Origin: Methylocystis rosea SV97
Lineage (GTDB): Bacteria; Pseudomonadota; Alphaproteobacteria; Rhizobiales; Beijerinckiaceae
Direction: 5' to 3'
NCBI RefSeq assembly: GCF_000372845.1
Contig: NZ_KB889963.1
Coordinates: 248,001-312,000, forward strand
DNA: 64,000 nucleotides
The notes beneath the pieces are model-generated. The model was not told the DNA's origin. It saw nothing but the letters and a program-made list of their open reading frames with translations, and ran no database searches. A program made the translations under genes and the position numbers. This document shows, one piece after another, positions 11,744 through 54,022 of the stretch (position 1 is the first letter of the stretch; every line of letters begins with the position of its first letter).

Positions 11744-11831
11744 CTCGGCGACGTTTGGGCGATCGGCGAGGCGAGCCATATATAGGGCTGGCGCGCCGGC
11801 CGCCTTCGCCGGTCTGATCAGGGCGCAATGC

Positions 11832-12545
11832 TTGTCGATTGACGCGACGCCGGAAAATCTCGCCGCTGAGCGGACAAGCGCGCCGATGCTGCGCGTCGAT
11901 GGGCTTAAGAAATCCTATCCGACGCCGCAGGGCCGCATTCCCGTGCTGCGCGGCGTGGACTTCACGCTCGCTGCGGGCGCCAGTCTCGCGCTGACCGGCG
12001 AATCTGGCAGCGGCAAGAGCACGCTGCTGCATCTGGTCGGCGCGCTCGACGACGCCGATTCCGGCGACATCGTTCTCGATGGCGTCGCGCTGACGCGGCT
12101 GTCGGAAAACGCGCGGGCCGCCATCCGGCGCGAAAGGATCAGCGTCGTCTTTCAGCAATTCAATTTGATTCCGAGCCTGACCGTCGGCGAAAATCTGAGC
12201 TTCCAGGCGCGGCTTGCCGGGCGCTACGATCCGGCGTGGCAGGAAGAACTCACCGCGCGTCTTGGCCTTGCGACGCTCGCCGCCCGCTATCCTGAAGAGC
12301 TGTCCGGCGGACAGCAGCAGCGCGTCGCCATCGGCCGCGCCCTCGCCGTACGCCCCAGGCTTCTGCTCGCGGACGAACCGACCGGCAATCTCGACGAAGC
12401 GACCGGAGACGCCGTCATGGCGCTGGCGCTCGACCTCGTCGCCGCGACCGGCTGCGCCTTTCTGATGGCGACGCACAGCGAACGCCTTGCGGCGCGGCTG
12501 CAACGGCGCGTGCGGCTGGAATCCGGTCTTCTGGCGGCGCAATGA
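11832..12545 (+). CDS. ABC transporter ATPase, LolD/MacB type
   Basis: A 237-residue ATP-binding subunit. Walker A is GESGSGKST (about 56-64), the Q-loop [18 protein letters not shown], the signature [15 protein letters not shown], Walker [13 protein letters not shown] and the H-loop ATHSE. This is the type that partners FtsX-like permeases in extracting lipoproteins or driving periplasmic machines rather than moving substrates through the pore. The TTG start at 11832 gives an 18-residue lead; an internal ATG at 11886 ([11 protein letters not shown]) is the alternative. The next gene begins in its stop (ATGA), so ATPase and permease are coupled. Confidence 0.92.
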
Positions 12546-15010
12546 GAGAGACGCTCTGGACGCTCGCCGCGCTTATCAGCCACTGGCGCCGACGGCCGGG
12601 GAACCTCGCGACGCTCGTGCTCGGCCTCGCCATCGCCACGGCGCTCTGGAGCGGCGTGCAGGCGCTGAACGCTCAAGCGCGCAACAGTTATGACGCCGCA
12701 GCGAACGCGATTTCGGGCGGCGGCGCGAGAACGCTCGTCGCCGCTCGCGGCGGCCTGTTTGACCAGGAGCTCTTCGTGAGACTGCGTCGCGCCGGCGTCG
12801 AAGTCTCGCCGGTGCTGGAAGGCGCAATCCGAATTGGCGAAAAGAATATTCGGATCATCGGCGTCGAACCGCTGTCGCTGCCGCGCCGTTCGCCGATTGC
12901 CGACAGACGGACGCGAACGGATGTGATCGAAGATTTCTTTTCCGGTCCAGGCCGCGGCTTTGCCGCCCCGCAGACCTTGCGCCGGCTTGATCTTTCGGAG
13001 GGCGCCCAGCCGCAAACCGAGCGTGGTCAGCTGCTCCCGCCGCTTGCGGCGCTCGCCGAAGCGCCGCCCGGCGCAATCATCGTCGACATCGGCGTCGCGC
13101 AACGCCTGCTCGATCGACCCGGAAAGCTCTCGCGACTCGTTATCCTCGATGAGGAGACATTCGACGAGGCGCGGCTTAAGCCAATCGCCGGCGATGCTTT
13201 GCGACTCGTCGCGCCGGATGATGATAGCGATCTCGCCCGCCTGACCGACAGTTTTCACCTCAATCTCACCGCCTTCGGCTTTCTTGCGTTCCTCGTCGGT
13301 CTGTTCATCGTGCACGCCGCTTACGGCCTCGCGTTCGAACAGCGACTGCCGACCTTGCGCACTTTACGCGCGCTCGGAGTTGGTCCCCCTCATCTCATCG
13401 CGGCGATGGCACTCGAAATCGGCGCCCTGACGCTCATCGCGGGAGGCGCGGGCGTCCTCGGCGGTCACGCCATCGCGCAGGCGCTTCTGCCGGATGTCGC
13501 AAAAAGTCTCGAGAGCCTCTACGGCGCGCAAATCTCCGATCGTCTTGCGCTAGATGCGCGCTGGTGGCTCTCCGGCCTCGCGATGGCGGGCGCCGGGGCG
13601 GCCCTCGCGGCGGCGAGCGGCCTGACGAAAGCATTGCGGCTGCCGGCGCTGTCGTTCGCGCGTCCCATGGCCTGGCGCGGCGCGCATCACCGCTATTTGG
13701 GACGGCAGGCGACGCTCGCGGCGCTTGCTCTTGTCGCGGCGGCCGGCGCATACGGCTTTGGCCAAGGACTTGCGTCAGGCTTCGCGATCATCGGCTTGGC
13801 GCTTCTTGCCGCCGCTCTCATTCTGCCGGTCGGGCTCGCCGGAGTCCTGGCGCTCGGCGAGCGTTTCGCGCGCCGCCCGCTCGCCCGCTGGTTCTTCGCC
13901 GACGGACGCCAGGAAATTTCCGGCCTTTCGCTTGCGCTGATGGCGCTGCTGATTGCGCTCGCGACCAATATCGGCGTCGGCAGCATGGTCGAGGGCTTTC
14001 GCCAGACGTTCGATCGCTGGCTCGACGCGCGGCTCGTCGCCGAGATCTATTTCGAAGCGGCGACGCCCGCCGATGCGCGCGACATCGAGGCGTGGGCGCG
14101 CACCCAGCCCGACATCGCCGCGATCCTTCCTGTCTGGCGCGCGAAGACGCGCATCGGCGGATGGCCCGTCGACGTCGTCGGCATGACGCCTCACGAAACC
14201 TATACGGCGCATTTTCCCTTGATCGACGCCCCGACGGGTGTGTGGACGGCGCTGCACGCGCAGGACGCCGTTCTCGTCAGCGAGCAGTTGGCGCGCCGCC
14301 TCAGTCTCGCCATCGGCGAGACGCTCGACATTTCGACGTCGGGGCGAGATTGGTCCGCGCGCATCGTCGGCGTCTTTCCTGATTACGGCAATCCGAAAGG
14401 CCAGCTGCGCATCGATCACGAAAAGCTGAAGCGCTATTTCGACGACGCCTCCGGCGTGCAATACAGCCTGCGTGTCGATCCCGCCGCCACAAAGCGCGTC
14501 ATCGAAAACATTCGGCAGCGCTTTGGCGGAAAAATCGCGCGCATCATCGATCAAGCGGAAGTCAAAACGCTGTCGACGGACATCTTCGAGCGCACATTCG
14601 CCGTCACGACGGCGTTGAACACGCTCACGCTGATCGTGTCCGGCGTCGCGCTTTTCGCCAGCCTGCTGACGCTCAGCGACATGCGGCGCGCCCGCATCGC
14701 GCCAGTCTGGGCCCTGGGCGCGACGCGGCGCAAGCTTGCGGCGCTGGAAATGGCGCGGGTCATGGCTTTCGCCGCCGGCGCCGCGGCTTTCGCGATCCCG
14801 CTCGGGCTGTTCATGACATGGTGCCTTGTCGCGATCGTCAATGTCGCCGCCTTCGGATGGCGGCTGCCATTCCATATGTTTCCGGCGCAATGGCTCGTGG
14901 TTTCCTGCATCGCGCTCGGCGCCGCGTTCTTTGCGGCGCTCATCCCCGTCGTTCGGCTCGCACGCGTCTCGCCGACCGAACTGCTCAGGGTCTTCTCGAA
15001 TGAACGCTAG
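12542..15010 (+). CDS. FtsX-like ABC permease
   Basis: An 822-residue permease overlapping the ATPase gene by 4 bases. One N-terminal helix lies at about residues 17-38, a large periplasmic domain follows to ~240, then groups of helices at about 245-370 and 385-480, a second periplasmic domain, and three C-terminal helices at about 690-815. The paired FtsX domains in one chain correspond to two half-permeases. With the ATPase and the following AttH-like protein this matches the AttEFGH-type arrangement, where attF and attG appear here as one fused permease. The cargo is unknown. Confidence 0.88.
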
Positions 15011-16103
15011 ATCCCCGAACAGTTCCCAGGAACGGAGCTCGGCAATTTCGAGGCGATCGGCGCTTCTTCTCGCGCTGTCGTCGAGCGGCGCGTTGGCGCA
15101 AGGCTTCGGCGGGCTTGGCGCGACGGCGCCCGGCTTCGCGATTCCACGAGCCGGAACGCAGCTCGCTTTTCCAAGAGACCACGGCGCGCATCCCGATTTT
15201 CGTACCGAATGGTGGTACGTCACCGCGAATCTAAAAGGCGATGACGGCGCCGCCTATGGCGTGCAATGGACGCTCTTTCGCTTTGCACTGCAGCCGAACG
15301 CGGCGCGGGCCGGCTGGGACGATCGCAATATTTGGATGGGCCATGCGGCGGCGACAAGCGTGAATGAACATCTCTTCGCGCAAAAATTCGCGCGCGGCGG
15401 AATTGGCCAGGCGGGCGTCGAGGCGACGCCCTTTCGCGCTTTCATCGACGACTGGCTTTTGGAAACGCGCGACGATTCCGTGGACGCCGGAATCGAGCGG
15501 CTGCGCGTTGCCGCGAGCGACAAGAGTTTCGCCTATGCGCTCGACCTTACAGCGACGGGGCCGGTCGTATTGCAAGGCGAAGGCGGCTACAGCCGCAAGT
15601 CCGAGGCTGGACAGGCCTCCTATTATTACAGCCAGCCGTTCTTTCGGGCGGAAGGCTCATTGTCGATGAGCGGACGCAAAATCCAGGTCTCCGGACGCGC
15701 CTGGATGGATCGCGAATGGTCGAGTCAGCCGCTCAGCGCTGATCTAAAAGGCTGGGACTGGTTTTCGCTGCATCTTGAGGGCGGCGCCAGACTGATGCTG
15801 TATCGCATGCGCAGCGTCGAGGCGGCGCCGTTTCTCTTTGGGAATTGGATCGACGCCGATGGCGCAACATCCATACTCGCGCGCGAAGACATCGTCCTCG
15901 AGCCTTTGGAGACGACGCGTATCGCCGATCGCGACGTGCCGATCCGCTGGCGCGTGAAGATTAAAAACCGCGACGTTGACATTGAGACGCGGCCGCTCAA
16001 TCCAAGAAGCTGGATGGGAACCGATTTCGCTTATTGGGAAGGTCCGATCCGCTTTACGGGTTCGCACAGCGGCGAGGGCTATCTCGAAATGACGGGCTAT
16101 TGA
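15000..16103 (+). CDS. AttH / carotenoid 1,2-hydratase-like lipocalin protein
   Basis: A 367-residue exported protein whose ATG overlaps the permease stop. The N-terminus contains SRRSALLLALSSSGALAQG, a likely twin-arginine signal. The first lipocalin-like domain starts with HPDFRTEWWYVTANL and VQWTLFRFAL (about 60-105); the second contains GRAWMDREWSSQPLSADLKGWDWF and ends with FAYWEGPIRFTGS. This is the CrtC/AttH family (tandem lipocalin). True CrtC hydrates carotenoids, but proteins encoded with an ABC/FtsX pair are the AttH group of unknown substrate. A role in handling a lipid or lipoprotein at the outer membrane fits. Confidence 0.86.
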   Translation: MNARSPNSSQERSSAISRRSALLLALSSSGALAQGFGGLGATAPGFAIPRAGTQLAFPRDHGAHPDFRTEWWYVTANLKGDDGAAYGVQWTLFRFALQPNAARAGWDDRNIWMGHAAATSVNEHLFAQKFARGGIGQAGVEATPFRAFIDDWLLETRDDSVDAGIERLRVAASDKSFAYALDLTATGPVVLQGEGGYSRKSEAGQASYYYSQPFFRAEGSLSMSGRKIQVSGRAWMDREWSSQPLSADLKGWDWFSLHLEGGARLMLYRMRSVEAAPFLFGNWIDADGATSILAREDIVLEPLETTRIADRDVPIRWRVKIKNRDVDIETRPLNPRSWMGTDFAYWEGPIRFTGSHSGEGYLEMTGY

Positions 16104-44505: not shown

Positions 44506-47106
44506 TCACCAGTTCCAGGCGACCGGCTGGAACCAGGCGCCCACGTCCGGCCAGCCGCCTTCATTGCCCGTGTAGAACAGGCCTGGCTCCCCCTTGGTCT
44601 CGCCGAACTGATAGCGTCCGGAGACATAGAAGGTTCTTTGCGGGAACGGATGGAACAGGAAGTATCGATAGTTGCCGATATTATCGACGCCGAAATCGGC
44701 GGAGAACCGTTCGTTCCATTTGTAATGGATCTTGGTGTCGACGACGAAGAACGGATCGAAGGCGAAATAGATTCCGTAGGCTCGGTCATTGTTCGCCAAG
44801 GTGCGCCACAGCTTGCTCTGATACCTGCCCGCCACCGTGAATGCCCAGTGATCGTCCGGCCGATAGGTAAAGGCGAGCGTTCCGCGCCATTCAGGAACGT
44901 TCGGCACAGTCTTGCCCGCCACCGACGTCGCCCAGGGGAACTCGAAATTCGACGTGCTTGGCGCCCAGGTCGGATCGGAGATGACGCGCGCATTGAGCCA
45001 GGTGGCGCTGCCGAGCACCTCAAGCCCCTTGAAGTAGAAATTGTCCTTCTGAAACGCCACTTCGACGCCGCTGTTGCGGATGCGCTGAACATTGGTCGGC
45101 GTTTGCACCAGCTGCGCGGCTGACCCGGGCACGGAGACCAGCTGGTTGATAATGGCGTCGCGCACTTCTTCGTCGAAAAAGGAGACGCGTGCGGTTCCAT
45201 CCGGTCCGAGCCGGCGCTCGATCATCAGCTCTTTGCTGAGCGCCGACTCGGGACGCAAATTGGGATTTGGGTTGGTGGCGACGCCATTAACGCCGACGGT
45301 CGCGAGATTGTAGAGTTCGCGCACGGTCGGAAAGCGGTTCGCCATGCCGATCGAGCCGACGGCGCGCCAATCATCATCGAACCTGTATTCGAGCGATCCT
45401 TTGGGCGAGAAGCGGGTGCTGTAGAGATTGGGCTGGTAGATCGGCAGCCAGGAGAGGGTCGAGCCTGTCAGCGCGGTCCCGAAATTGTTGACGCCCGCCG
45501 CCTGATTGTAGCCGTCCGACGCCTGCCAGTGCTCGCCGCGAAGACCGGCCGTGAACTTCAGATCCGGCGTAATGAAGAAAGCGTCCTGGAACCACAGCGC
45601 CTGCGTGCGCGTCGTGCCCTGAGCGATCGTCACTGCGGCGCCGGTGCTCGCGTCCGTCCCCCCGGTCCAGTTCGACGTCAGCCAGACCGGATTGTTCAGG
45701 TGAAACTGATCGCCGTGCACGCCGAAGGAGATGTCGTGGCCCTGTAAAATTCCTTCTGGCGGCCGCACGATGCCCTTCGCGTCGAAGAGCGTCCAATAGG
45801 TGCCGGTGAAGACCGTATCGCGGCCAGTCTGCGTGTAGCCGCCAAAGGGCACGGCGGCTGACCAGGGCGAGATCTGATCGGACTGCAGATAGGTAAAATT
45901 GGAGGCCGAAACTTCGAAGTCGAACGGACCGCCGCTGTTGGAGCGCACCGCCGCGGCGTTGACCATGATCTTTTCCTGGATCCGGTAACGGCCCTGCGTC
46001 GCGAAATTCTGCAAAATGGCGTTGCTCAGGCCGCGCCCCGTGGTCGTCACGCCCCATAAGGGGGCATTGCCCGCAGTAAGGTAGTTCTCGGGATAAGACT
46101 GACCATCATTGGACCAGAAGCCGAATGTGTAAGTGCCGCGGATCGTGTTGGTGAAGTCGTAGGCGAATTTCAGTTTCGCATTGATCTGATCGTTAGCGAG
46201 ATTGCCTGTCGAGCCGATGACGTTGGCGAACGTGGTGCCATAGACGTTCGTCGCCAGATAGCCGCCGGGGTAAAAATTCGGCGTCGTGACATAGGTGAGC
46301 GGCTGCTGCGATCCACGCTGCCAGTTGCCGGAGACCGTCCAGAGGAAGTCGCCGACCTTATCGCCGATAAAGAAGCTCGAGACGTTATTGACGAAGCCTC
46401 TCGACGTTCCCCACTGGGAGAAATCCTGGATCGTCGTGGTGTTCCTGACCGAGACTTCGAGCTTTTCGGGCATGCGCGTCGTGATTTTCAACACGCCGCC
46501 AAGCGAGTTGCCGGGGTACTGCGCCGCGAACGGTCCGTAGAGAAAATCGACGCGCTCGATTTCCTCCGGCGCGACGAGACCCCAGCGCGGCGCGCCAATC
46601 GTATTGTCGTTGCCGATGAGCGCCGTCAGCAGCAGATCGTCGGCGTAAACGAGGCTGCGCGCCGAGGAGCCGACGCCCCAAGTGCGAGTCTGCAAAACCG
46701 CCTGAGTGTCGCCGCTGTTGCGTTTGCGCACGAACAGGCTCGGCATGTATCTGACCGCGTCTTCCGTGTCGACGATGTTGATTTTACGGTCGATCTGTTG
46801 ACGCGTGACGCTCGCGACCGTGTTGGGCAATTGCCACTTCTGAACAAAGGCCGGCTTGCCGTCGGGAAGCGTCGCCGCCCATATCGATGGCGGCGAAGGC
46901 GCTGCGGACGGGCTCGGAGCCAGGTTTGTGCCGGTCGCAGGGCCTGCGATGCGTTGAGTCCCACGCGGGACGCCGCGGCGCTGACCGCCGACGTCGATGG
47001 TCGGCAGCGACTGCTGCGCGGCGGCAGGGGCGGCCCAAAATTCGGAAAGCGCAAGGACGGTGAGAGCGCCGACCGAAACGCCGCGCAGGAGCGAGTAGCG
47101 AGACAT
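44506..47106 (-). CDS. TonB-dependent outer membrane receptor
   Basis: An 866-residue TonB-dependent transporter. The signal peptide ends about residue 30 (AAPAAAQQ), and the mature protein begins SLPTIDVGG, nearly identical to the corresponding part of the receptor at 9386-11743. A Pro/Ala-rich linker follows, then the plug (SVTRQQIDRKINIVDTEDAVRYMPSLFVRKRNSGD, and DFLYGPFAAQYPGNSLGGVLKITT) and the barrel, ending RYQFG followed by an unusual ~30-residue tail GEPGLFYTGNEGGWPDVGAWF with terminal VAWNW. The start is MSRYSLLRG. DUF2946-like genes lie upstream and ExbB/ExbD/TonB beyond them, so the energiser is local. Confidence 0.93.
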   Translation of the reverse strand: MSRYSLLRGVSVGALTVLALSEFWAAPAAAQQSLPTIDVGGQRRGVPRGTQRIAGPATGTNLAPSPSAAPSPPSIWAATLPDGKPAFVQKWQLPNTVASVTRQQIDRKINIVDTEDAVRYMPSLFVRKRNSGDTQAVLQTRTWGVGSSARSLVYADDLLLTALIGNDNTIGAPRWGLVAPEEIERVDFLYGPFAAQYPGNSLGGVLKITTRMPEKLEVSVRNTTTIQDFSQWGTSRGFVNNVSSFFIGDKVGDFLWTVSGNWQRGSQQPLTYVTTPNFYPGGYLATNVYGTTFANVIGSTGNLANDQINAKLKFAYDFTNTIRGTYTFGFWSNDGQSYPENYLTAGNAPLWGVTTTGRGLSNAILQNFATQGRYRIQEKIMVNAAAVRSNSGGPFDFEVSASNFTYLQSDQISPWSAAVPFGGYTQTGRDTVFTGTYWTLFDAKGIVRPPEGILQGHDISFGVHGDQFHLNNPVWLTSNWTGGTDASTGAAVTIAQGTTRTQALWFQDAFFITPDLKFTAGLRGEHWQASDGYNQAAGVNNFGTALTGSTLSWLPIYQPNLYSTRFSPKGSLEYRFDDDWRAVGSIGMANRFPTVRELYNLATVGVNGVATNPNPNLRPESALSKELMIERRLGPDGTARVSFFDEEVRDAIINQLVSVPGSAAQLVQTPTNVQRIRNSGVEVAFQKDNFYFKGLEVLGSATWLNARVISDPTWAPSTSNFEFPWATSVAGKTVPNVPEWRGTLAFTYRPDDHWAFTVAGRYQSKLWRTLANNDRAYGIYFAFDPFFVVDTKIHYKWNERFSADFGVDNIGNYRYFLFHPFPQRTFYVSGRYQFGETKGEPGLFYTGNEGGWPDVGAWFQPVAWNW

Positions 47107-47182
47107 GGGATTCTTCCTTCTAGCGCCGGTCAAGGCGGCGCGACTGACCTGAACGGCTTTCGCCGTCGCAACGTTCGGCAGA

Positions 47183-47554
47183 TCAGGTGAAGGAAGGAGG
47201 TCCGCGCGGAGGGGCGCTGCGGTTTGGCCGCGACGGGACAAACGCCTGTGTCGGCGGCGCCCGCGGCGCAAGATTGAGTTCGACGCCACGGATCGCAAAA
47301 ACGGCGTCCGCCGGCGGCGCGCTCCAGCCGATCTGGCAGAGCGCGCAAGAGCAATCGTCGCGGTCCGCGTTGTCCAGAGGCGCTTGATCGGAACCGCCCT
47401 GCGCCATAGGCGATGTGTTCGCCAGCAAATGGCACTTGGCGATCGGCGCGTTCGGCGCGTCAACGGATCTCGACGCCATCGCCTCGCAAGGCGATACGAG
47501 CCTCGCGACGAGCGCAAGGAGAGCGAGGAGAGCGAGGAGTTGGCGAATGCGCAT
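47183..47554 (-). CDS. DUF2946-like secreted protein
   Basis: A 123-residue exported protein. The signal peptide is RIRQLLALLALLALVARLVSPCEA, encoded in part by a GAGCGAGGA-type 9-base tandem repeat that yields the LLALLALLAL run. The mature part carries AKCHLLANT and DRDDCSCALCQIGWS, the CxCxxC cluster of DUF2946-like proteins, and a Pro-rich tail. An upstream in-frame ATG at 47578 is an alternative start. It is encoded 77 bases before the TonB receptor on the same strand, so the two are likely co-expressed. Metal handling is inferred from the clustered Cys. Confidence 0.6.
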   Translation of the reverse strand: MRIRQLLALLALLALVARLVSPCEAMASRSVDAPNAPIAKCHLLANTSPMAQGGSDQAPLDNADRDDCSCALCQIGWSAPPADAVFAIRGVELNLAPRAPPTQAFVPSRPNRSAPPRGPPSFT

Positions 47555-47677
47555 AGGCTCTTGCGAATTCGACGTCATTAACTTTAGCGACGCCGTAATC
47601 GCACATGAACCGGTAAACCGAGACTTTCCAAGCCTGCGCGCGTTGTCAAAGGTTAAAAAATCAACTAAGAGACATTT

Positions 47678-48106
47678 ATGTCACAGTTGCGCGCCATGCG
47701 TCGGGAATTCCGTGCGGCATTTGCCGTCGCGGCCGCTTGCGCGCTGATGTTCTCACTTCTTTTATCGGGCGCGACGCGGCCGGCGCACGCATTCGCGGAC
47801 CAAGGCGGAATCGCCTGCGATCATGCCGCTTATGTTGCAAGTCTTCACGCAACCGCCGCGCAGAAGGGGGGGTCGACGCAGCGCGACGGCTCGCCAACGC
47901 ATTCTACGCGTAGCTGTCCGGATTGTTGCCTGACCGCCCATGCAGGCCACGCCGTTCTTCCAGAGCGCGTCGCTTCGGCGATGCGGACCGCCGCAGAGCG
48001 CCCTTCTGAAATTTGGCATTGCGCCGTCGCCACGCAGCCGCCCGAGAGTTTCGCAGCGAATGGCGCGAATGGCGCGCGCGCCCCACCCTCGATTCATATT
48101 TCCTGA
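47678..48106 (+). CDS. DUF2946-like secreted protein
   Basis: A 142-residue protein with a signal peptide (FAVAAACALMFSLLLSGATRPAHA, cleavage about residue 38). The mature part contains IACDHAAYVASLHATAAQ, then SCPDCCLTAHAGHAVLPERVA, a CPxCC...H.GH block typical of the DUF2946 group, and EIWHC. His and Cys in these blocks could bind copper or zinc. It is divergent from the other DUF2946-like gene, 100-120 bases away, and leads into the exbB-exbD-tonB run. Confidence 0.6.
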   Translation: MSQLRAMRREFRAAFAVAAACALMFSLLLSGATRPAHAFADQGGIACDHAAYVASLHATAAQKGGSTQRDGSPTHSTRSCPDCCLTAHAGHAVLPERVASAMRTAAERPSEIWHCAVATQPPESFAANGANGARAPPSIHIS

Positions 48107-48259
48107 ATTTGCTTTAGACTCCAATGCGCCGCGCAGGAGTCTAACTGCGGGCTTTCGCCGCTTTGCGGCCTCTCGTCTCGCGAAGATATAACAAAACAAA
48201 AACTGACGCTTCGCCTGCGCGATCGCCGCAAGCGCGTCCAATGAAACGAGTGAGTGAAA

Positions 48260-48904
48260 ATGGATTACAACACGCTTTCCCCTCTCGCCATGTTCCTCAA
48301 CGCCGGTCCTGTCGGAAAGGCCGTCATGGCCCTGCTGCTGCTCGCGTCGATCTGGACGTGGGTGCTCATCGTCGAAGGCGTGGTGGCCGTCACCCGCATC
48401 GCCAAATCCGCGCGTTCGGCGCGTTTGGGCGGAGACGTTGGCGTTCTCGCGCCCGTCGCCGAAGCGGGCCGTGAAGCTTTTGCGCTCGATCTCCCGGACG
48501 AGACGATTGGCGACAAGCGCGCGCGCATCGCCGACCATATGAGCCGCGCGGCGCGCGAGTTCCTGACCAAGGCGGAGGGTGGCCTGCCCAATCTCGCCGT
48601 CATCTCATCGGTCGCGCCTTTCGTCGGCCTCTTCGGCACGGTGTGGGGCATCATGACGAGCTTCGCCGGTATCGCTCAATCGCAGGACACGAGCCTCGCG
48701 GTCGTCGCGCCGGGCATCGCTGAAGCGCTTGCGGCCACGGCCTACGGACTTGCCGCCGCCATCCCCGCCTCGGTCGGCTACAACCGCATCGGCGCCGCCT
48801 TCGCGCGCGTCGGACAGCAAGTCGCGCACTACATTGAAGACGAGGCGCTGCTGATGTGCAGCGGCCATCAGACGCGCGCGCGTCGTGAGCGGGAGGCTGC
48901 ATAA
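48260..48904 (+). CDS. exbB: ExbB/TolQ-type proton channel protein
   Basis: A 214-residue membrane protein. Helix 1 is at about 17-38 (GKAVMALLLLASIWTWVLIVEG); the large cytoplasmic loop follows; helices 2 and 3 lie in SSVAPFVGLFGTVWGIMTSFAGIA and GIAEALAATAYGLAAAIPASVGYNRI, the standard MotA/TolQ/ExbB block. It is the pentameric channel that, with ExbD, uses proton-motive force to energise TonB. The ATG at 48260 is chosen; GTG two codons earlier is possible. Its stop overlaps the exbD start by one base. Confidence 0.94.
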   Translation: MDYNTLSPLAMFLNAGPVGKAVMALLLLASIWTWVLIVEGVVAVTRIAKSARSARLGGDVGVLAPVAEAGREAFALDLPDETIGDKRARIADHMSRAAREFLTKAEGGLPNLAVISSVAPFVGLFGTVWGIMTSFAGIAQSQDTSLAVVAPGIAEALAATAYGLAAAIPASVGYNRIGAAFARVGQQVAHYIEDEALLMCSGHQTRARREREAA

Positions 48905-49431
48905 TGGGCATGCCCTCACGCCAGCGCCAGAGCGCAACCGAAGGCCTTTATCAGCCGCTCGCCGATATCAATGTGACGCCGCTCGTCGACGTCATGCTCG
49001 TGCTGCTGATCATTTTCATGATCACCGCGCCATTGCTCGCCAAGGGCGTCAAGGTGAATCTGCCGCAGGCGAGCGCCGCGATGCCGATCAACCAAAAAGA
49101 CCCGATCGTCGTGACGGTGGGCAAGGAGGGCAAGATCGCGCTTGGCGCGGACGAGCTCTCAGCGGAGGCGCTCATCGACGGCATCAAGGTGATGATGGGC
49201 GACGACCAATCGCGCGTCGTTCATATCCGCGGCGACACGGAAGCGGTTTATGGCGAGGTGGTCGCGGTGATGGATAAGCTTGCGACGAACGGCATCACCC
49301 ATATCGCGATCATGACCAATTCGCGCAGCAAGACCGGCGCAGGCATCAAAGCCTCGCCCGGCCGCGCCGCGCCTGCCGCGGGCGCCCTGCCCGCGCAAGC
49401 TCCGGCGGCGCCCGCGGGAGCGCTGAAATGA
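48904..49431 (+). CDS. exbD: ExbD/TolR biopolymer transport protein
   Basis: A 175-residue protein with a short cytoplasmic N-terminus, a single helix containing the conserved Asp (NVTPLVDVMLVLLIIFMIT, about 21-39) and a periplasmic domain (KVNLPQASAAMPINQKDPIVVTV, then RVVHIRGDTEAVYGEVVAVMDKL). The Asp in LVDVML carries the proton. A ~30-residue Ala/Pro-rich tail is an addition. Starts at the exbB stop and overlaps tonB by 4 bases (ATGA), so all three are translationally coupled. Confidence 0.95.
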   Translation: MGMPSRQRQSATEGLYQPLADINVTPLVDVMLVLLIIFMITAPLLAKGVKVNLPQASAAMPINQKDPIVVTVGKEGKIALGADELSAEALIDGIKVMMGDDQSRVVHIRGDTEAVYGEVVAVMDKLATNGITHIAIMTNSRSKTGAGIKASPGRAAPAAGALPAQAPAAPAGALK

Positions 49432-50144
49432 CCGATTTCGCGCTAAGTCCGCAAGGCATGGCGCGAGAGGGCGACAACCCGCCTTCGGGTCCGGAGCCGG
49501 TCAAGCCCTCCTGGCTGCGCTCGGTGACGACCGTCCTCGTCATCGCGGCGCATGTCATGGTCTTCGGCATACTCGCCTATTCGGCGAAGCCAACGGCGGT
49601 GTCGCTCGACTCTGTGAGCATGGACCTCGTGCCGGAAGGCGACTTCTTCGAGCAGGAGGAAGTCGCCGAGGCCGACGACACGCCGCCGCCCGAAGCGGTC
49701 GAGGAGCCTGACATCGCGCTTCCGCCGCCGGTGGTGATGGCGCCAGACGCGGTGCCCTTGCCCGCCAAGAAGGAAGACGTCGACAAGGTCAAGAAGAAGG
49801 TCGAGCAGCAACAGGTCCAGCGCGCGCAGCAACGTCAGGAGGCGCAGGCGCGTCGACGCTACGGCGCGCCCGAGGGACAGGCCGGGAATTCGGGCGCATC
49901 GCAGGCGACGTGTCTTGCCCATATCGCCGCAGCGCTTCGCCGACATACGCCAGGCAACACCAGCCTTGGTCCTGGCAGCGCGAGCGTGACGTTCCACGTC
50001 AATGCGGGCGGCGGTCTGTCGGGCATCTCGGCTTCGGGATCGACTCCGGCGCATGCGGCGCTCGCGCGGCGGATCGTGTCCTCCGCACGCGGACCCGGCA
50101 TGTGCAGCTCGGCCTTCGTGAGCCAGGCTTTCGCCTTCCATTGA
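49428..50144 (+). CDS. tonB: TonB energy-transducing protein
   Basis: A 238-residue TonB. It has a cytoplasmic N-terminus of ~28 residues, one membrane helix at about 31-51 (VTTVLVIAAHVMVFGILAYSA), an acidic/Pro-rich periplasmic span (EVAEADDTPPPEAVEEPDIALPPPVV), a Lys/Gln-rich helix (KVKKKVEQQQVQRAQQRQEAQ) and a C-terminal domain about 155-238 with YPxx-less but clear VTFHVNAGGGLSGISASGSTPAHAALARRI. It would contact the TonB boxes of the receptors encoded nearby. A Cys pair (TCLAHI and MCSSAF) in the C-terminal domain may form a disulfide. Confidence 0.9.
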   Translation: MTDFALSPQGMAREGDNPPSGPEPVKPSWLRSVTTVLVIAAHVMVFGILAYSAKPTAVSLDSVSMDLVPEGDFFEQEEVAEADDTPPPEAVEEPDIALPPPVVMAPDAVPLPAKKEDVDKVKKKVEQQQVQRAQQRQEAQARRRYGAPEGQAGNSGASQATCLAHIAAALRRHTPGNTSLGPGSASVTFHVNAGGGLSGISASGSTPAHAALARRIVSSARGPGMCSSAFVSQAFAFH

Positions 50145-50205
50145 CGCGAACGGCGGCGGACGCTCGCGCCCGCCGCCTAAGATCGTTCCGGACATTGGGG
50201 GCCTG

Positions 50206-50709
50206 ATGATGCTCGCGCGACTGCTTACCATCGGCGCGGCGCTCGCCGCTTGCGCCGCGCATGCCGAGGATGCCAAGCCCGCGCCCGCGCCGCCGGCGCC
50301 CATGACGGCCGCGCCCGCGGCGCCGGCGCCAGCACGAACCGCAGCGCCAACACAAACCCCAGCGCCGGCGCGCGCCGCTGCGCCAAAGCCCGCCGCGCCC
50401 GCGACGACGCAAGGAGCGGCCGCGCCTTCCGCGGCTCCGGCGATGTCAGAGAGCAAGTTCCTCGGCGTGCTCTACACGGCGATCGCCAAGCGAACGCCCA
50501 CGGAAAGTCCTGCCGGCGACGGCGAGGTGACGGCCAGCTTTCACGTCAATGCGCAAGGCAAGATCGACAAGGTGACGATCGATAAGACGACCAGCCCCGC
50601 CCTCGCCGAGACGGTGACGAAGATCCTGTCGAGCGTCGAAGCGCCCCCACCGCCGGGCGGATCGATGGATGTGGGACAAACGTTCAAGTTCCGTGCAACG
50701 CCGAAATGA
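50206..50709 (+). CDS. Secreted protein with TonB C-terminal-like domain (1)
   Basis: A 167-residue protein with a cleavable signal (LARLLTIGAALAACAAHAED) instead of the TonB membrane anchor, an Ala/Pro-rich linker to about residue 80, and a C-terminal domain: LGVLYTAIAKRTPTESPAGDGEVTASFHVNAQGKIDKVTIDKTTSPALAETV. It ends APPPPGGSMDVGQTFKFR. This is the TonB/TolA C-terminal fold, but without the anchor it cannot transmit force from ExbBD. It may bind the receptors or TonB as a periplasmic adaptor. It is 61 bases after tonB. Confidence 0.78.
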   Translation: MMLARLLTIGAALAACAAHAEDAKPAPAPPAPMTAAPAAPAPARTAAPTQTPAPARAAAPKPAAPATTQGAAAPSAAPAMSESKFLGVLYTAIAKRTPTESPAGDGEVTASFHVNAQGKIDKVTIDKTTSPALAETVTKILSSVEAPPPPGGSMDVGQTFKFRATPK

Positions 50710-50797
50710 GTCGGTCGCGCCGTTCAAAACTTTCGGTCCCTGGCTGAATTGAATCCATGCGCAAGAGGCCCGCGCATATTTATCGAAGGAGAAGAAA

Positions 50798-51319
50798 ATG
50801 CGGCGCATTTCTCGACTGACATTGAGTCTTTCTGCATTGGCGTTCGCCTGCGCGCTTGGCGCGAGCGGACCGGCGCGCGCGATCGATGAGGCGCAAAAGC
50901 CAAAAACTGAAGAAGTCGCCGAACCGAAGCGCGAGGACAGCAAGGATACGAAATCCGAGGAAAAGACCGAAAAGCGCGAGGAGAAGACCGACGCCGGGCG
51001 CGAACAGAAACCCAAGGCCGCGCGGGACGAGAAGTCCGAGAAGGCGGCCGATAAAAAGAAACACGCCGACAACAGCGCCTATCTGCGCAAGCTCGGTCAG
51101 CTCATTCGGGCGCGCTCGCCGGGCACGACAAGTCTCGGCGAAGGAAGCGCCGTCGTTCGCTTTCGTCTTGGCGCTGCAGGCGCGCCCAATAGCGTCGCCG
51201 TCGTTTCAGCGTCGACGCCACGGCACGGCGAATTGGCGCGCTCCATCGTCTCGGGCCTGCGGGCGCCGCCGCCGCCCGGCGGCTCCTACGACGGCGTGCA
51301 GAGTTTCAGATTTCACTAG
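50798..51319 (+). CDS. Secreted protein with TonB C-terminal-like domain (2)
   Basis: A 173-residue protein. The signal peptide ends about residue 28 (GASGPARAID); a highly charged Lys/Glu linker covers ~30-92 (KTEEVAEPKREDSKDTKSEE); the C-terminal domain is about 93-173 (YLRKLGQLIRARSPGTTSLGEGSAVVRFRLGAAGAPNSV) and ends GLRAPPPPGGSYDGVQSFRFH. It is a paralogue of the preceding and following genes with a linker of different chemistry. A clear GAAGGAGAAG ribosome binding site precedes the ATG. Confidence 0.78.
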   Translation: MRRISRLTLSLSALAFACALGASGPARAIDEAQKPKTEEVAEPKREDSKDTKSEEKTEKREEKTDAGREQKPKAARDEKSEKAADKKKHADNSAYLRKLGQLIRARSPGTTSLGEGSAVVRFRLGAAGAPNSVAVVSASTPRHGELARSIVSGLRAPPPPGGSYDGVQSFRFH

Positions 51320-51406
51320 CGAAGTCGCGCGCGCATGACAGGCGCGCGACGTCGGCTCTGCGGCTGAGCCAAGATTGGAGGGAAGGATGAAACGCAAGGA
51401 AGAAAA

Positions 51407-51781
51407 ATGCGTCGCCTTCTCCCGCTAACGTGGGCTTTTGCCTCCCTCGTCGCTGGAGTGGGAACGACGCCAGCACGCGCAGAATCGGATCGCGAGGCTG
51501 CGCGCGCCGCTTACGTAGCCCGCGTTTCGCAAATTTTGCGCGCGCGCACCTTTCTCGACAGGTCCGCGCAACGCTTCCGAATGGACCTCCGACGTCCTGC
51601 TCGGGGCTTTGTGCGCGTTCGGTTCGAGATTGATTCGTCGGGCAGTGTGCAAAAGTTTAGAGTCTTGGAGGCGAGCAGCGACGTGCACGCCAGGAAGGCG
51701 GAAGAGATCGTTTCCGGCTTACGCGCGCCGCCGCCACCCGGTGGCGGCTTTGTAGCCGAACAATCGTTCAACTTTAGATGA
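51407..51781 (+). CDS. Secreted protein with TonB C-terminal-like domain (3)
   Basis: A 124-residue protein, the shortest of the three: signal peptide to about residue 25 (VAGVGTTPARAES), then directly the C-terminal domain (YVARVSQILRARTFLDRSAQ, VRVRFEIDSSGSVQKFRVLEASSD), ending GLRAPPPPGGGFVAEQSFNFR without a linker. AAGGAAG precedes the ATG. A 13-codon out-of-frame ATG reading frame at 51387 overlaps its start and might affect translation. It lies 34 bases before the Asp-box gene. Confidence 0.77.
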   Translation: MRRLLPLTWAFASLVAGVGTTPARAESDREAARAAYVARVSQILRARTFLDRSAQRFRMDLRRPARGFVRVRFEIDSSGSVQKFRVLEASSDVHARKAEEIVSGLRAPPPPGGGFVAEQSFNFR

Positions 51782-51815
51782 CGGCGCCGCTACACAGATG
51801 AGATCGGGAGGAACA

Positions 51816-53105
51816 ATGAAGCGTTTAGCTCTTGCCCTAATGGCGTTCGCGGCCTCGGGCGCCGCAAGCGCGGAACAAGGCGCGCCGTCAGCAGACGCTC
51901 CTAAGGACGCGGCGACGCCGACTCAATCGACGCCGCCGGCCGCGATGAGTCACCATCCCGCCGCCGCCTGCGCCGACGCGAAGGTCGACTGCGCGGCGAC
52001 CGCCGTTCCCGCCTTTGCGAAGGACGGACGACTGTGGGTCGCCTTCTCCGTCGGCAAGAGCCTTTACGCGGCCGCCTCTTCGGATAATGGCGCGACGTTC
52101 TCCGCGCCGACCGCGATCGCCACGATCGGCGACGGCGTGATCGACGCGCATGGCGACGCGCGTCCGAAAATCATCGCGCTCAAAGACGGAACGCTGCTCG
52201 CGAGCTATACGACCCGGCCCGACAAGCAGATGATCGGCACGATCTTCACCGCTCGCTCGACCGACGGCGGCAAGACGTTTACAGCGCCGCAGGCGCTTCT
52301 GGCTGAGGGCGGCCAGCGCTTCGACAGCATCGTCGTCAATCGCAAGGGGCGCATCTACGCCGGTTGGCTCGACAAGACGCATGCGCTCAAAGCCAAGGCC
52401 GAAGGCAAGGAGTTTCTCGGCAGCGGCGTCGCCTTCGCCTATTCGGACGACGGCGGCAAGACCTTCAAAGGCAAGTCGATCCTCATCGATCACGCCTGCG
52501 AATGCTGCCGCATGTCAGGCGCGCTCGACAAAGATGGAACGCCGGTCTTCGCCTGGCGACAGGTGCTAGATGGCAATGTTCGCGACCATATGGTCGCGAA
52601 ACTCTCTGCGGACGCCGCGCAAGCGACGGCGACGCGCGTTTCGGACGACGACTGGGCGATCAATAGCTGCCCGCATCATGGACCATCGATCGCGATCGAC
52701 GCCGCCGGCGATTGGCATGTGGTCTGGTTCACCAAGGGCAAGAAGCGCCAGGGGCTCTATTACGCGCGCAGCCTCGACGAAGGCAAAAGCTTCTCGGAGC
52801 CGGAGAAATTCGGCGACGACGCACGCGCCGCCGGACATCCGACGCTGGTCGCGGCCAAGGGCCGCCTGTATCGCGTCTGGAAGGAATTCGACGGCACGAC
52901 GACGACCATCGCCATGCAAATGTCGCGCGACAACGGCAAGAGCTGGAGCGCGACGCGCGTCGTGGCGCAGACCTTGGACGCCTCCGACCATCCCGAACTC
53001 ATCGCCCATAATGGCGCGGCGTATTTGTCGTGGTTGACGCATAAGGAAGGCTATCGCCTGATGCCGCTGCCGCGAGACGAAAAAAGCGCAGCGGCGCCGC
53101 AGTGA
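51816..53105 (+). CDS. Asp-box (BNR, sialidase-fold) exported protein with Cys/His cluster
   Basis: A 429-residue protein with a signal peptide (ALALMAFAASGAASAEQ) and GGGAGG before the ATG. Five Asp-box motifs are visible: SSDNGATF (~88), STDGGKTF (~148), SDDGGKTF (~210), SLDEGKSF (~319), SRDNGKSW (~370), indicating a six-bladed propeller as in sialidases. The catalytic Arg triad and Asp of true sialidases are not evident. Instead there are clustered metal-type residues: HHPAAACADAKVDC (~46-59), HACECCRM (226-233) and CPHH (285-288). It is in the TonB gene run and followed by a TlpA-like protein, so a periplasmic metal-binding role is more likely than sugar hydrolysis. Confidence 0.75.
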   Translation: MKRLALALMAFAASGAASAEQGAPSADAPKDAATPTQSTPPAAMSHHPAAACADAKVDCAATAVPAFAKDGRLWVAFSVGKSLYAAASSDNGATFSAPTAIATIGDGVIDAHGDARPKIIALKDGTLLASYTTRPDKQMIGTIFTARSTDGGKTFTAPQALLAEGGQRFDSIVVNRKGRIYAGWLDKTHALKAKAEGKEFLGSGVAFAYSDDGGKTFKGKSILIDHACECCRMSGALDKDGTPVFAWRQVLDGNVRDHMVAKLSADAAQATATRVSDDDWAINSCPHHGPSIAIDAAGDWHVVWFTKGKKRQGLYYARSLDEGKSFSEPEKFGDDARAAGHPTLVAAKGRLYRVWKEFDGTTTTIAMQMSRDNGKSWSATRVVAQTLDASDHPELIAHNGAAYLSWLTHKEGYRLMPLPRDEKSAAAPQ

Positions 53106-53198
53106 CGCCAATTCGGATGGGCGCTGCTTTGTCATTGGCGACGCGCGCGCCGCGCGTGATCGGCAATCCAGAAACGATCGACGGCGCCAGCTTTATCA

Positions 53199-53239
53199 CT
53201 CTCGATTCCCGGTCGGGCCTGCGGCCTGCTGGGAATGAC
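53199..53239. repeat. Dispersed palindrome (partial copy)
   Basis: CTCTCGATTCCCGG to CTGGGAATGAC reproduces, in the opposite orientation, the left half of the 107-base palindrome at 5172-5278. It separates the Asp-box gene from the TlpA-like gene and can itself fold into a short hairpin. Confidence 0.7.
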
Positions 53240-53272
53240 AAGAACTATAAAAGTTTAGTGGGTCTTCGCCGC

Positions 53273-53752
53273 ATGCGCCTCATGTCTCTCGCCCTCGCCT
53301 TCGCCCTCCTTGCAGGAGGAGGCGCCTTCGCCATGGACTTCAAGCCATACGGCCGAGGCGCGTTCGGGCAATTGACCAAGGCTCACGCCGGCAGGCCGCT
53401 CATCGTGCATTTCTGGTCGGTGACCTGTCCGCCCTGCCTCGTGGAACTGCCGCAATGGGCGAAGATCGCCGCCGAGAAAAAGGGATTCGACATCGTCTTC
53501 GTCAACACCGACAGCGACGAAGATCGCGCCCGCGCGCAAGCGCGCCTCGAGAAGGTCGGGCTTTCGGGCGCGGATCATTACGGATTCGCCGACGACTTTG
53601 TCGAAAAGCTCTATTTCGAAGCGGACAGCGCCTGGCGCGGAGAACTGCCGTTCACGGCGCTCGTCGCCCCCGACGGCGGCGTCGTGACGGTGACGGGCGG
53701 GGTCGACGATCCGCTGATCGTCGACTGGCTGCATAAGCGCGTAGCCAAGTGA
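53273..53752 (+). CDS. TlpA-type periplasmic thioredoxin
   Basis: A 159-residue exported thioredoxin-fold protein. The signal peptide is SLALAFALLAGGGAFA; the active-site motif is HFWSVTCPPCLVELPQW, with CPPC at about 49-52, the TlpA/ResA-like WxxxCxPC arrangement. The cis-Pro is in GELPFTALVAPDG. Such proteins reduce disulfides in periplasmic metalloproteins or copper chaperones. The frame is open well upstream, but the ATG at 53273 begins the signal peptide. It follows the Asp-box gene with the palindrome between them. Confidence 0.85.
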   Translation: MRLMSLALAFALLAGGGAFAMDFKPYGRGAFGQLTKAHAGRPLIVHFWSVTCPPCLVELPQWAKIAAEKKGFDIVFVNTDSDEDRARAQARLEKVGLSGADHYGFADDFVEKLYFEADSAWRGELPFTALVAPDGGVVTVTGGVDDPLIVDWLHKRVAK

Positions 53753-53761
53753 AGCGGCCGC

Positions 53762-53962
53762 TTACCAGCGGCCTCGCGCGTAAAGCACGCCGAGCACGAT
53801 GAGAAGCGCCAGCAATTGCAAACCGACGCGCCAGCGCATCAGCTTCTGCGAGCGGGCCGGCGCGCCCTCGCCGCCGCGAAACATATTGATGAAACCGGCG
53901 ACGACGACGAGAATCACCGCCCCGACGGCGACAATGACCAACAGATTTGAATAACTTGGCAT
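53762..53962 (-). CDS. HIG1-domain twin transmembrane protein
   Basis: A 66-residue protein with two helices (LLVIVAVGAVILVVVAGFINMF and WRVGLQLLALLIVLGVLYA) joined by a loop with RSQKLMRWRVGLQ, the HIG1 signature. In alphaproteobacteria these proteins are thought to associate with respiratory oxidases as their mitochondrial relatives do. It is a single small gene, convergent with the TlpA-like gene (9 bases between stops). Confidence 0.85.
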   Translation of the reverse strand: MPSYSNLLVIVAVGAVILVVVAGFINMFRGGEGAPARSQKLMRWRVGLQLLALLIVLGVLYARGRW

Positions 53963-54022
53963 GAGCGGCGCTTCTCCCTACCCGGTGCGCTGTAGAGAAG
54001 CGCGCGCCCGCGGGCAAGGCGT

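What the first reader, a model, noticed from the sequence alone, without database searches (positions are those of the whole stretch)
50206..51781. Three consecutive secreted TonB C-terminal-domain proteins behind exbB-exbD-tonB
After a complete ExbB/ExbD/TonB set come three genes whose products have cleavable signal peptides instead of a membrane anchor, then a variable linker (Ala/Pro, Lys/Glu, none), then a TonB C-terminal-like domain. All three end with the same APPPPGGS/G...Q-F-F-R block, which TonB itself lacks. Soluble TonB domains cannot transduce force, so they could be adaptors, competitors or receptor-plug binders for the adjacent metal-uptake system. I do not know of a described system with this triplet.
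Basis: partly seen in the sequence, partly recalled or inferred. Interest (0 to 1): 0.75.

Follow-up and report, generated by a model that had tools for sequence, protein, structure and literature searches.

The report
Secreted TonB tips beside copper importer
In methane-eating Methylocystis bacteria, a gene set that looks built for importing copper also makes small free-floating proteins shaped like the receptor-gripping tip of the TonB energy rod but without its membrane anchor; one is strongly conserved, and what they do is not known.

Summary
Behind exbB-exbD-tonB lie three genes (50206-50709, 50798-51319, 51407-51781) for signal-peptide proteins with a TonB C-terminal domain (CTD). Profile searches, AlphaFold2 models of S1 and S2, and Foldseek agree; S3 rests on sequence. 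None carries the motor-contact His of TonB (0 of 49 rows, against 26 of 28 TonB rows).

It is not a fixed triplet. In 22 named loci, found by their S1 gene, tonB directly precedes S1 wherever the DNA reaches (19 of 19); S2 is in 15, S3 in 5. The S1 CTD appears under stronger purifying selection than the TonB CTD; S3 is weakly constrained. The APPPPGG block is a common TonB feature, lost by this TonB, which has a cysteine pair instead.

Both divergent operons begin with leader ORFs bearing the CXXC...R(A/G)PP signature of CruR, a copper-sensing arrest peptide: very probably a copper-repressed uptake locus.

Best mechanism (inferred): S1 binds the receptor's TonB box and governs TonB engagement. 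A sister genome has CruR-receptor-secreted CTD-PepSY_TM without exbBD, pointing to the receptor as partner. Searches of an open-access library found no description.

The parts
44506..47106 (-). TonB-dependent receptor (866 aa) with conserved LPTIDV TonB-box-like N-terminus just after the signal peptide
   Evidence: Pfam Plug and TonB_dep_Rec; LPTID or LPTIN near the N-terminus in all 19 receptors printed. Start chosen by my gene caller.
47183..47578 (-). CruR-type leader ORF of the receptor gene (DUF2946-like): CALC, 43 residues, RGPP, 3 residues before the end
   Evidence: Motif count; weak DUF2946 hit, 20.1 bits, below the 23.7 cut-off; kept in 12 of 17 named loci that reach upstream of exbB, the same 12 that keep the receptor.
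47678..48106 (+). CruR-type leader ORF of the exbB operon (DUF2946-like): CPDC, 50 residues, RAPP, 5 residues before the end
   Evidence: Motif count; weak DUF2946 hit, 19.7 bits; motif in 15 of 17 named loci that reach upstream of exbB.
48254..48904 (+). exbB/tolQ-like motor gene
   Evidence: PF01618 E=1.3e-29; a later start at 48260 is possible.
48904..49431 (+). exbD/tolR-like gene
   Evidence: PF02472 E=1.6e-29.
49428..50144 (+). tonB: membrane anchor with motor His42, charged linker, divergent CTD with a Cys pair in place of the aromatic/poly-Pro block
   Evidence: No Pfam hit at E<=1; motor-His test; Cys pair; CTD homologous to S2.
50206..50709 (+). S1: secreted TonB-CTD protein, conserved core member; signal peptide 50206-50265, Ala/Pro linker, CTD 50443-50700
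   Evidence: 14 of 15 PDB profile hits at E<=10 are TonB-type, best 2.3e-5; AlphaFold2 block pLDDT 90-95 for residues 81-160; Foldseek ranks 1-25 all TonB/TolA/HasB/FusB CTDs; synteny; dN/dS.
50798..51319 (+). S2: secreted TonB-CTD protein with Lys/Glu linker; signal peptide 50798-50881, CTD 51059-51316
   Evidence: E=7e-12 to the window TonB; AlphaFold2 block pLDDT 92-98 for residues 91-173; Foldseek ranks 1-26 all TonB/TolA-type CTDs, best a TolA CTD.
51407..51781 (+). S3: secreted TonB-CTD protein, almost no linker, 10-residue insert after helix 1; signal peptide 51407-51481
   Evidence: TIGR01352 29.7 bits, over its 27.1 cut-off; no structure model made; patchy (5 of 22 loci) and weakly constrained.
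51798..53105 (+). BNR beta-propeller protein, exported, with ten invariant Cys/His (C58, C65, H232, C234, C236, C237, H264, C291, H293, H307); start may be 51816
   Evidence: PF13088/PF02012; the ten residues are kept in 12 of 12 rows aligned, window included.
53210..53752 (+). TlpA/thioredoxin-like protein with CPPC; last gene of the cluster, start uncertain (no start codon at 53210)
   Evidence: PF08534 E=1.8e-8 for a slightly longer frame.

Best explanation
The locus is a copper-starvation uptake system of Methylocystis. Two divergent operons, each led by a CruR-type copper-sensing arrest ORF, make an outer-membrane receptor on one side and its own ExbB-ExbD-TonB motor, secreted TonB-CTD proteins, a putative metal-binding propeller and a thioredoxin-like protein on the other. 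S1 (with S2 and S3 as lineage-specific extra copies) is exported, loses its signal peptide and diffuses in the periplasm as a TonB tip without a motor. Most likely its beta-3 edge pairs with the receptor's LPTIDV TonB box, so that it competes with or paces TonB engagement and sets how much copper enters. Supported by computation: fold, export signal, absence of the motor contact, purifying selection on S1, linkage to CruR-led receptor operons. Inferred: copper as the metal, binding to the TonB box, and the governing effect.
For: Fold: profile hits to solved TonB CTDs, alpha-beta-beta-alpha-beta models, Foldseek. Export and no motor contact: (0 of 49 secreted rows, 26 of 28 TonB rows). Selection: S1 CTD dN/dS 0.04-0.19 in 14 comparisons, 11 of them at or below 0.09, against 0.12-0.19 in 11 of 12 TonB CTD comparisons and 0 in one. 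The PP loop and beta-3, the strand that pairs with the TonB box in FhuA-TonB (PMC11658791, passages read), are with beta-1 the best conserved parts of S1 and are the most conserved of S2. Copper: CXXC and R(A/G)PP leaders in 15 of 17 (exbB side) and 12 of 17 (receptor side) named loci; CruR function from PMC9426467 (passages and one section); CrtA copper receptors are often CruR-led and some have ExbBD-TonB genes (PMC12914433, abstract, one section and passages). Receptor-side partner: L095 has CruR, receptor, secreted CTD, PepSY_TM in a row and no exbBD among the genes called. Precedent: the title of Howard et al. 2001, seen in a reference list, says that periplasmic TonB inhibits FecA and FhuA transport in E. 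coli; the paper itself is not held.
Against: No complex was modelled and no binding measured. A brake co-expressed with the importer under starvation is not obviously useful. The same LPTID box stands on the unlinked second receptor of the window, so the box gives no specificity. The adjacent receptor is not OprC-type by NCBIfam and not shown to be CrtA-type. The DUF2946 hits of both leaders are below Pfam's cut-off, and two of 17 named loci (L105, L115) lack the leader motif. In unnamed L093 and L094 another secreted CTD, not S1, stands next to tonB. The secreted CTDs, like the local TonB, differ from classical TonB after helix 1 (no YP motif there; motif recalled), so their partner surface may differ. 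Foldseek E-values are modest (3 of 268 matches at or below 0.001 for S1, 1 of 213 for S2), and whole-chain pTM is 0.49-0.50.
Confidence: 0.4

Rival explanations
1. TonB partner: the secreted CTDs dimerise with the CTD of the membrane-bound TonB (or with one another) and change its grip or receptor choice, rather than binding the receptor directly.
For: All four CTDs are homologous. [quoted passage not shown] In all 19 named loci that reach, S1 sits directly behind tonB.
Against: L095 has a secreted CTD beside a receptor with no exbBD/tonB among the genes called. S1 occurs beside both Cys-pair TonBs and block-bearing TonBs (L091, L093, L094), so it does not track the change in TonB.
Confidence: 0.17
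2. Cargo relay: like FusB, whose CTD touches the imported protein, the secreted CTDs receive the incoming copper chelate or hand it to the Cys/His-rich propeller protein.
For: FusB-CTD binds ferredoxin directly (PMC13253070, abstract). The propeller gene with ten invariant Cys/His follows in 19 of 21 named loci with downstream DNA.
Against: No sign of metal ligands: 53 of 54 S1, S2 and S3 rows have no Cys in their last 110 residues, and no His or Cys, and no Met but Met1, is among the invariant S1 residues.
Confidence: 0.12
3. Dispensable duplicates: the secreted proteins are by-products of tonB CTD duplication without a function, on their way to loss.
For: S3 is patchy (5 of 22) with CTD dN/dS 0.33-0.65. 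S2 is absent from 7 of 22, and in L105 and L109 (both MAG contigs) its reading frame is interrupted in the signal/linker part.
Against: S1 is in 5 of 5 genomes shown as the same genus, own included (76 of 119 genomes without a match are not listed there, so a hidden miss cannot be excluded), and its CTD is more constrained than that of TonB. Plausible for S3 only.
Confidence: 0.1
4. Envelope scaffold: the CTDs bind peptidoglycan or the outer membrane and position receptors or TonB.
For: Soluble proteins with Ala/Pro or Lys/Glu linkers of variable length. Peptidoglycan binding by TonB CTDs is recalled, not looked up.
Against: In S1 the linker is, with the signal peptide, the least conserved part, and it is very short in the S1 of L093 and L094 (119 aa proteins).
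Confidence: 0.06

Closest known systems
TonB (energy transducer of ExbB-ExbD), C-terminal domain family PF03544/TIGR01352
   Same: Same CTD fold and recognisable sequence; Pro-rich or charged linker in S1 and S2; encoded behind tonB.
   Different: Signal peptide in place of a membrane helix; no motor-contacting His; so not expected to be pulled by ExbB-ExbD.
CruR-CrtA-PepSY_TM copper import operon of Bordetella pertussis (PMC9426467, PMC12914433)
   Same: CruR-type leader ORFs with CXXC and R(A/G)PP before a TonB-dependent receptor; ExbBD-TonB genes occur in some such loci.
   Different: Two divergent leader ORFs; no PepSY_TM here; secreted TonB CTDs and a propeller are not named in the passages I read (AhpC_TSA genes are). 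CrtA-type membership of the receptor is not shown.
Periplasmic TonB domain made in E. coli (Howard et al. 2001, title only)
   Same: By its title, the periplasmic domain of TonB made on its own, which is what S1 looks like.
   Different: An experiment; here natural, conserved and in the same operon as the receptor's motor.
FusB/HasB, system-specific TonB homologues
   Same: Dedicated TonB-type CTDs, hit by Foldseek with the S1 and S2 models.
   Different: Anchored in the inner membrane (FusB: PMC13253070 abstract; HasB recalled).
Other exported TonB_C-only proteins (L188, L189 lipoproteins; L213, L102, L103, L214 secreted)
   Same: A lone exported TonB CTD without a motor helix, judged by eye.
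   Different: No ExbB/ExbD hit among the genes called in L102 and L103; the neighbours of the others were not searched for copper genes; function unknown.

Membership tests
TonB energy transducer | C-terminal domain of TonB fold | tested here: met
   for S1 and S2; TIGR01352 over cut-off for S3. S1 and S2 themselves are below the TIGR01352 cut-off (23.6 and 16.4 against 27.1 bits).
TonB energy transducer | N-terminal membrane anchor with the motor-contacting His (SHLS motif, PMC12204202, passage read) | tested here: not met
   0 of 49 distinct full-length S1, S2 and S3 rows; 26 of 28 TonB rows (five truncated or mis-started rows dropped; the two without are the secreted L094:9719 and the genome's other TonB, L098).
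TonB energy transducer | Binds the TonB box of a receptor | not testable with these tools
   No complex prediction offered; beta-3 conservation is only suggestive.
CruR (DUF2946 copper-sensing leader ORF) | CXXC and C-terminal RAPP about 45 residues apart, ORF first in the operon | tested here: met
   Spacing 43 and 50 in the window, 44-50 in named loci; one of the two window leaders has RGPP, not RAPP, and a spacing of 50 is beyond the one or two residues of variation that the paper reports around 45.
CruR (DUF2946 copper-sensing leader ORF) | Pfam DUF2946 over its curated cut-off | tested here: not met
   19.7 and 20.1 bits against 23.7.
CruR (DUF2946 copper-sensing leader ORF) | Copper-dependent relief of translation arrest | not testable with these tools
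   Needs expression data.
CrtA copper receptor | Membership of the CrtA sequence cluster | tested here: inconclusive
   phmmer of the window receptor against PDB sequences gave only PhuR and PirA at E<=0.001; whether the CrtA structure is in that copy was not checked.
OprC copper receptor (TIGR01778) | Match to TIGR01778 | tested here: not met
   Not among the 20 NCBIfam families listed for the receptor at E<=1.

The most novel reading that the evidence does not exclude
A natural class of motor-less TonB tips: secreted, conserved TonB C-terminal domains, made in the same copper-starvation operon as a dedicated ExbB-ExbD-TonB, which occupy the TonB box of a copper receptor and so act as built-in governors or priming factors of TonB-dependent transport. 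Soluble TonB domains would then be regulators and not only artificial dominant negatives.
Probability: 0.3. Interest if true: 0.75.

Novelty: new variant of a known kind. Interest (0 to 1): 0.55.

Why it matters
TonB-dependent uptake is usually taken to be controlled by expression and by ligand signalling to the TonB box (recalled). A conserved soluble protein with the TonB tip would add a third layer, protein competition at the box, and would do so for a toxic metal on which methane oxidation by pMMO depends. It would also give methanotrophs a copper route to set beside methanobactin (whether this genome has methanobactin genes was not checked), and offers a clean comparison system: S1 with and without S2/S3, and Cys-pair against block-bearing TonB.

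Tried and rejected
Unrelated fold or membrane anchor: rejected by profile hits, models, Foldseek and the motor-His test. Conserved triplet: rejected. C-terminal block as a hallmark of the secreted proteins: rejected. OprC-type receptor: not supported. Metal-binding role of S1: no conserved ligands. Promoters and terminators in 46900-54000: 0 and 8 consensus matches, against 0.8 and 7.6 in shuffles, so operon limits are not settled. Copper transcriptome of Methylosinus trichosporium OB3b (PMC12811070, passages read): no ExbB or DUF2946 in the main text; its supplements were not open to me. Literature: ten searches, of which some aimed at soluble or secreted TonB domains, one at the periplasmic TonB domain, and some at copper and methanotrophs; none listed a paper that I saw to describe secreted TonB CTDs in a receptor operon, but most listed papers were seen as listings only and the library lacks most subscription journals. 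One paper speaks of 'periplasmic TonB-like proteins' in Pelobacter (PMC3543383, passage) without saying whether they lack an anchor. Plasmid hits of the S1 CTD lie in hypothetical proteins of 238 and 348 aa (from annotated coordinates) in iron-siderophore clusters. The first order-level profile (A5: 37 of 297 genomes) held a full-length TonB by mistake and so found mostly TonB-length frames; of its two short-frame hits outside the family, G264 gave no ORF by my rule and G323 was not looked at. It was replaced by A6. In one search one propeller row was out of frame; repeated. Rows dropped before counts: a spurious L110 antisense ORF; L095, L111, L117 and others; five truncated or mis-started rows. 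The dN/dS run took 14 loci of my choice. The signal-peptide and hydrophobicity test is a simple rule of mine, not SignalP; the site it picks is often upstream of the obvious one, and it finds no proper signal in the mis-started S2 rows of L105 and L109.
Full report
What is there. The window lies in a Methylocystis genome (inferred: its PntA, PntB, ExbB and TonB are 97-99% identical to those of Methylocystis sp. L43, locus L104). On the + strand run exbB (48254-48904), exbD (48904-49431), tonB (49428-50144), then three small genes here called S1 (50206-50709), S2 (50798-51319) and S3 (51407-51781), then a BNR propeller protein (51798-53105) and a thioredoxin-like protein ending at 53752. Divergently, on the - strand, lies a TonB-dependent receptor (44506-47106). 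Between the two operons sit two small ORFs, one at the head of each (47183-47578 - and 47678-48106 +).

The three proteins are exported TonB C-terminal domains. S3 passes the curated cut-off of TIGR01352 (29.7 against 27.1 bits); S1 and S2 fall below it (23.6 and 16.4 bits) and the window's own TonB is not hit by that model at E<=1. S2 finds the window TonB in its own genome at E=7e-12. A profile of S1 with some S2 and S3 rows hits solved TonB CTDs first (6sly, E=2.3e-5; 14 of 15 hits at E<=10 are TonB, HasB or a TonB homologue). A profile of S2 with TonB, S1 and S3 rows hits 6sly at 2.9e-4; 14 of 23 hits at E<=10 are of this kind, the other nine are unrelated and mostly match the Lys/Glu linker. 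AlphaFold2 gives helix-strand-strand-helix-strand for both, with block pLDDT of 90-95 (S1, residues 81-160) and 92-98 (S2, residues 91-173) and low confidence in signal and linker; whole-chain pTM is 0.49 and 0.50. Foldseek against PDB lists TonB, TolA, HasB or FusB domains at ranks 1-25 for S1 and 1-26 for S2, with modest E-values (best 2.0e-4 and 4.3e-4; the best S2 match is a TolA domain). No structure of S3 was predicted.

No membrane motor contact. The SHLS motif binds TonB and TolA to their motors (PMC12204202, passage). A His in a hydrophobic core with a hydrophobic residue at +7 occurs in 26 of 28 distinct full-length TonB rows and in 0 of 27 S1, 0 of 16 S2 and 0 of 6 S3 rows. Of the two TonB rows without it, L094:9719-10084 has 122 residues and its hydrophobic stretch at residue 11, so it is itself a secreted CTD; the other is L098, the genome's second TonB. 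The -1 residue of the S1 signal peptide, Ala20, is invariant in 26 rows.

The C-terminal block. APPPPGG with Q-x-F-x-F is present in S1, S2 and S3, but similar blocks stand in the TonBs of related loci L091, L093, L094 and L096 and in the more distant TonBs of L099 and L101. Of 30 rows labelled TonB, 25 have no block and two cysteines, one in helix 1 (CLAH or CLAQ) and one in the loop that holds the prolines elsewhere; the other 5 have the block and not this pair. In the alignment the helix cysteine stands where S1-S3 have Phe or Tyr. So a disulfide staple may replace an aromatic-proline contact in this TonB; that is inference.

Conservation and spread. A profile of four S1 proteins found 22 loci in a collection of one genome each for 84,980 species; all are Methylocystaceae or MAGs named only as Alphaproteobacteria or Hyphomicrobiales. 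They were found by S1, so S1 is present by design. Some are not independent: L120 appears to be the contig of G057, L105 and L116 share a MAG, and L114 and L115 share a genome. tonB lies directly upstream in 19 of 19 loci whose DNA reaches; S2 follows in 15 of 22 (L104-L118), in two of these (L105, L109) with an interrupted frame; S3 is in 5 of 22; the propeller gene follows in 19 of 21 with downstream DNA. In a sample of the family, 119 genomes, strong S1 hits (E<=3.7e-35) are in 5 of 5 genomes shown as the same genus, own included, and in 2 of 3 shown of genus g42 (E<=3.4e-28); 76 genomes without a match are not listed. With a CTD-only profile 55 of 118 genomes match. Outside these two genera only two of the matched frames are shorter than 210 codons: G055, which encodes a lone secreted CTD (L213), and G030, a short frame near a contig end without an evident signal peptide (L100). 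In the class sample 13 of 240 genomes match, and outside the window's genome no matched frame is under 240 codons (at most 22 candidates a genome were scored). Elsewhere in the phylum I looked at 15 mostly short-frame or paired places taken, whose lists are partial; 14 gave an ORF, two of them lipoproteins with a TonB_C domain by their LAGC motif (L188, L189). Lone exported TonB CTDs thus exist elsewhere; the linkage to a CruR-led copper-type locus is what is special here.

Ancestry and selection. In a tree of 85 CTDs, 27 S1 rows form one supported set, 26 TonB rows another (the secreted L094:9719 among them), the 6 S3 another, and 15 S2 rows group with S3 and three other secreted CTDs. The S2-labelled rows of L093 and L094 and the L095 protein fall elsewhere. 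Only 88 columns were used and several long branches meet, so deep joins are unsure. Pairwise NG86 dN/dS against the window, CTD only, for 14 loci of my choice: S1 0.04-0.19 (11 of 14 at or below 0.09), TonB 0-0.19 (11 of 12 at 0.12-0.19), S2 0.03-0.56, S3 0.33-0.65; the rest of S1 is at 0.18-0.42. These pairs share ancestry and dS is rough in GC-rich genes. They say that S1 is under strong purifying selection and S3 weakly constrained.

Copper. In B. pertussis the first ORF of the bfrG operon is a DUF2946 protein whose CXXC senses copper and whose C-terminal RAPP arrests translation; the two motifs are 45 residues apart, and homologues head copper-related operons (PMC9426467, passages and one section). 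Here both leaders carry the pair, CALC-43-RGPP and CPDC-50-RAPP, near the C-terminus. Among 2188 ORFs of the window and 15 loci, 15 match the motif: 13 are leaders of this locus in the window and in L089-L094 (the receptor-side leader of L093 does not match), one heads the receptor of L095, and one (window 8949-9329) lies directly before another TonB-dependent receptor. In the named loci 15 of 17 keep the exbB-side leader and 12 of 17 the receptor-side leader, the same 12 that keep the receptor; L105 and L115, second copies, lack the motif, though L115 keeps a DUF2946-like ORF. Both window leaders score below Pfam's DUF2946 cut-off. The receptor, renamed CrtA, imports chelated copper; [quoted passage not shown] The propeller protein has ten Cys/His invariant in 12 of 12 aligned rows, as a metal-binding protein might. 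Copper is therefore the most likely metal, but no expression data were available.

How it may work. The TonB CTD holds a receptor by pairing its beta-3 strand with the TonB box (PMC11658791, passages). The receptor's N-terminus reads LPTID or LPTIN in all 19 receptors printed, the window's unlinked second receptor included, so the box alone gives no specificity. In S2 the PP loop and beta-3 are the most conserved parts, and in S1 they are with beta-1 the best conserved. In a sister genome (L095) a secreted CTD stands between a CruR-led receptor and a PepSY_TM gene, with no exbBD among the genes called: the B. pertussis order with one gene added. This favours the receptor as partner. A soluble tip that binds the box but cannot pull would compete with TonB; the title of Howard et al. 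2001 says that periplasmic TonB inhibits FecA and FhuA transport (seen only in a reference list). I therefore take a receptor-side governor as the best guess, at 0.4; a TonB partner, a cargo relay like FusB (PMC13253070, abstract), a scaffold, or dispensable copies (S3) remain.

Verdict. A real, conserved and, as far as these searches of an open library show, undescribed feature; a new variant of the TonB kind, not a new kind. Its fold and setting are well supported; its function is open and directly testable.

Noticed in passing
window 8949-9329 and 9386-16103: A third CruR-motif ORF (ends RAPPCFS; no Pfam hit at E<=0.1) heads a second TonB-dependent receptor (closest solved sequences YncD/PqqU), followed by an ABC-type ATPase (named by eye), an FtsX/MacB protein and a CrtC-type lipocalin.
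   Followed up: partly
window 51798-53105: Exported BNR propeller with ten Cys/His invariant in 12 of 12 aligned rows (HxCxCC, CxH and others): candidate copper-binding propeller.
   Followed up: partly
window 49428-50144: TonB with a helix-loop cysteine pair and no poly-Pro block, as in 25 of 30 TonB-labelled rows; also in the genome's other TonB (L098).
   Followed up: partly
L095:4124-14307: CruR-motif ORF, receptor, secreted CTD and PepSY_TM in a row beside a PQQ dehydrogenase, a MoxJ-like and a di-haem peroxidase (MauG-like) gene: copper-type leader next to a methanol-oxidation cluster.
   Followed up: partly
L102:9207-10925, L214:672-1465, L103:9321-9704: Further secreted TonB CTDs (three, two and one) with Cys/His near their C-termini; in L214 they sit before a 502-aa gene that looks like a D-Ala carboxypeptidase and a CobW-like GTPase (names by eye, not searched).
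   Followed up: no
L089:10482-10805, L092:10384-10680: In two genomes without S2 and S3 a different small secreted protein (FEWDDGRGAFPFRP) with no Pfam or NCBIfam hit stands between S1 and the propeller gene.
   Followed up: no
L105:8118-8582 and L109:1746-2298: S2 reading frame interrupted in the signal/linker part in two MAG contigs; sequencing error or decay, not told apart.
   Followed up: no
window 51254-51286 and 51716-51748: S2 and S3 carry RAPPPPGG near the C-terminus, which contains the RAPP of CruR's arrest motif; probably coincidence, untested.
   Followed up: no
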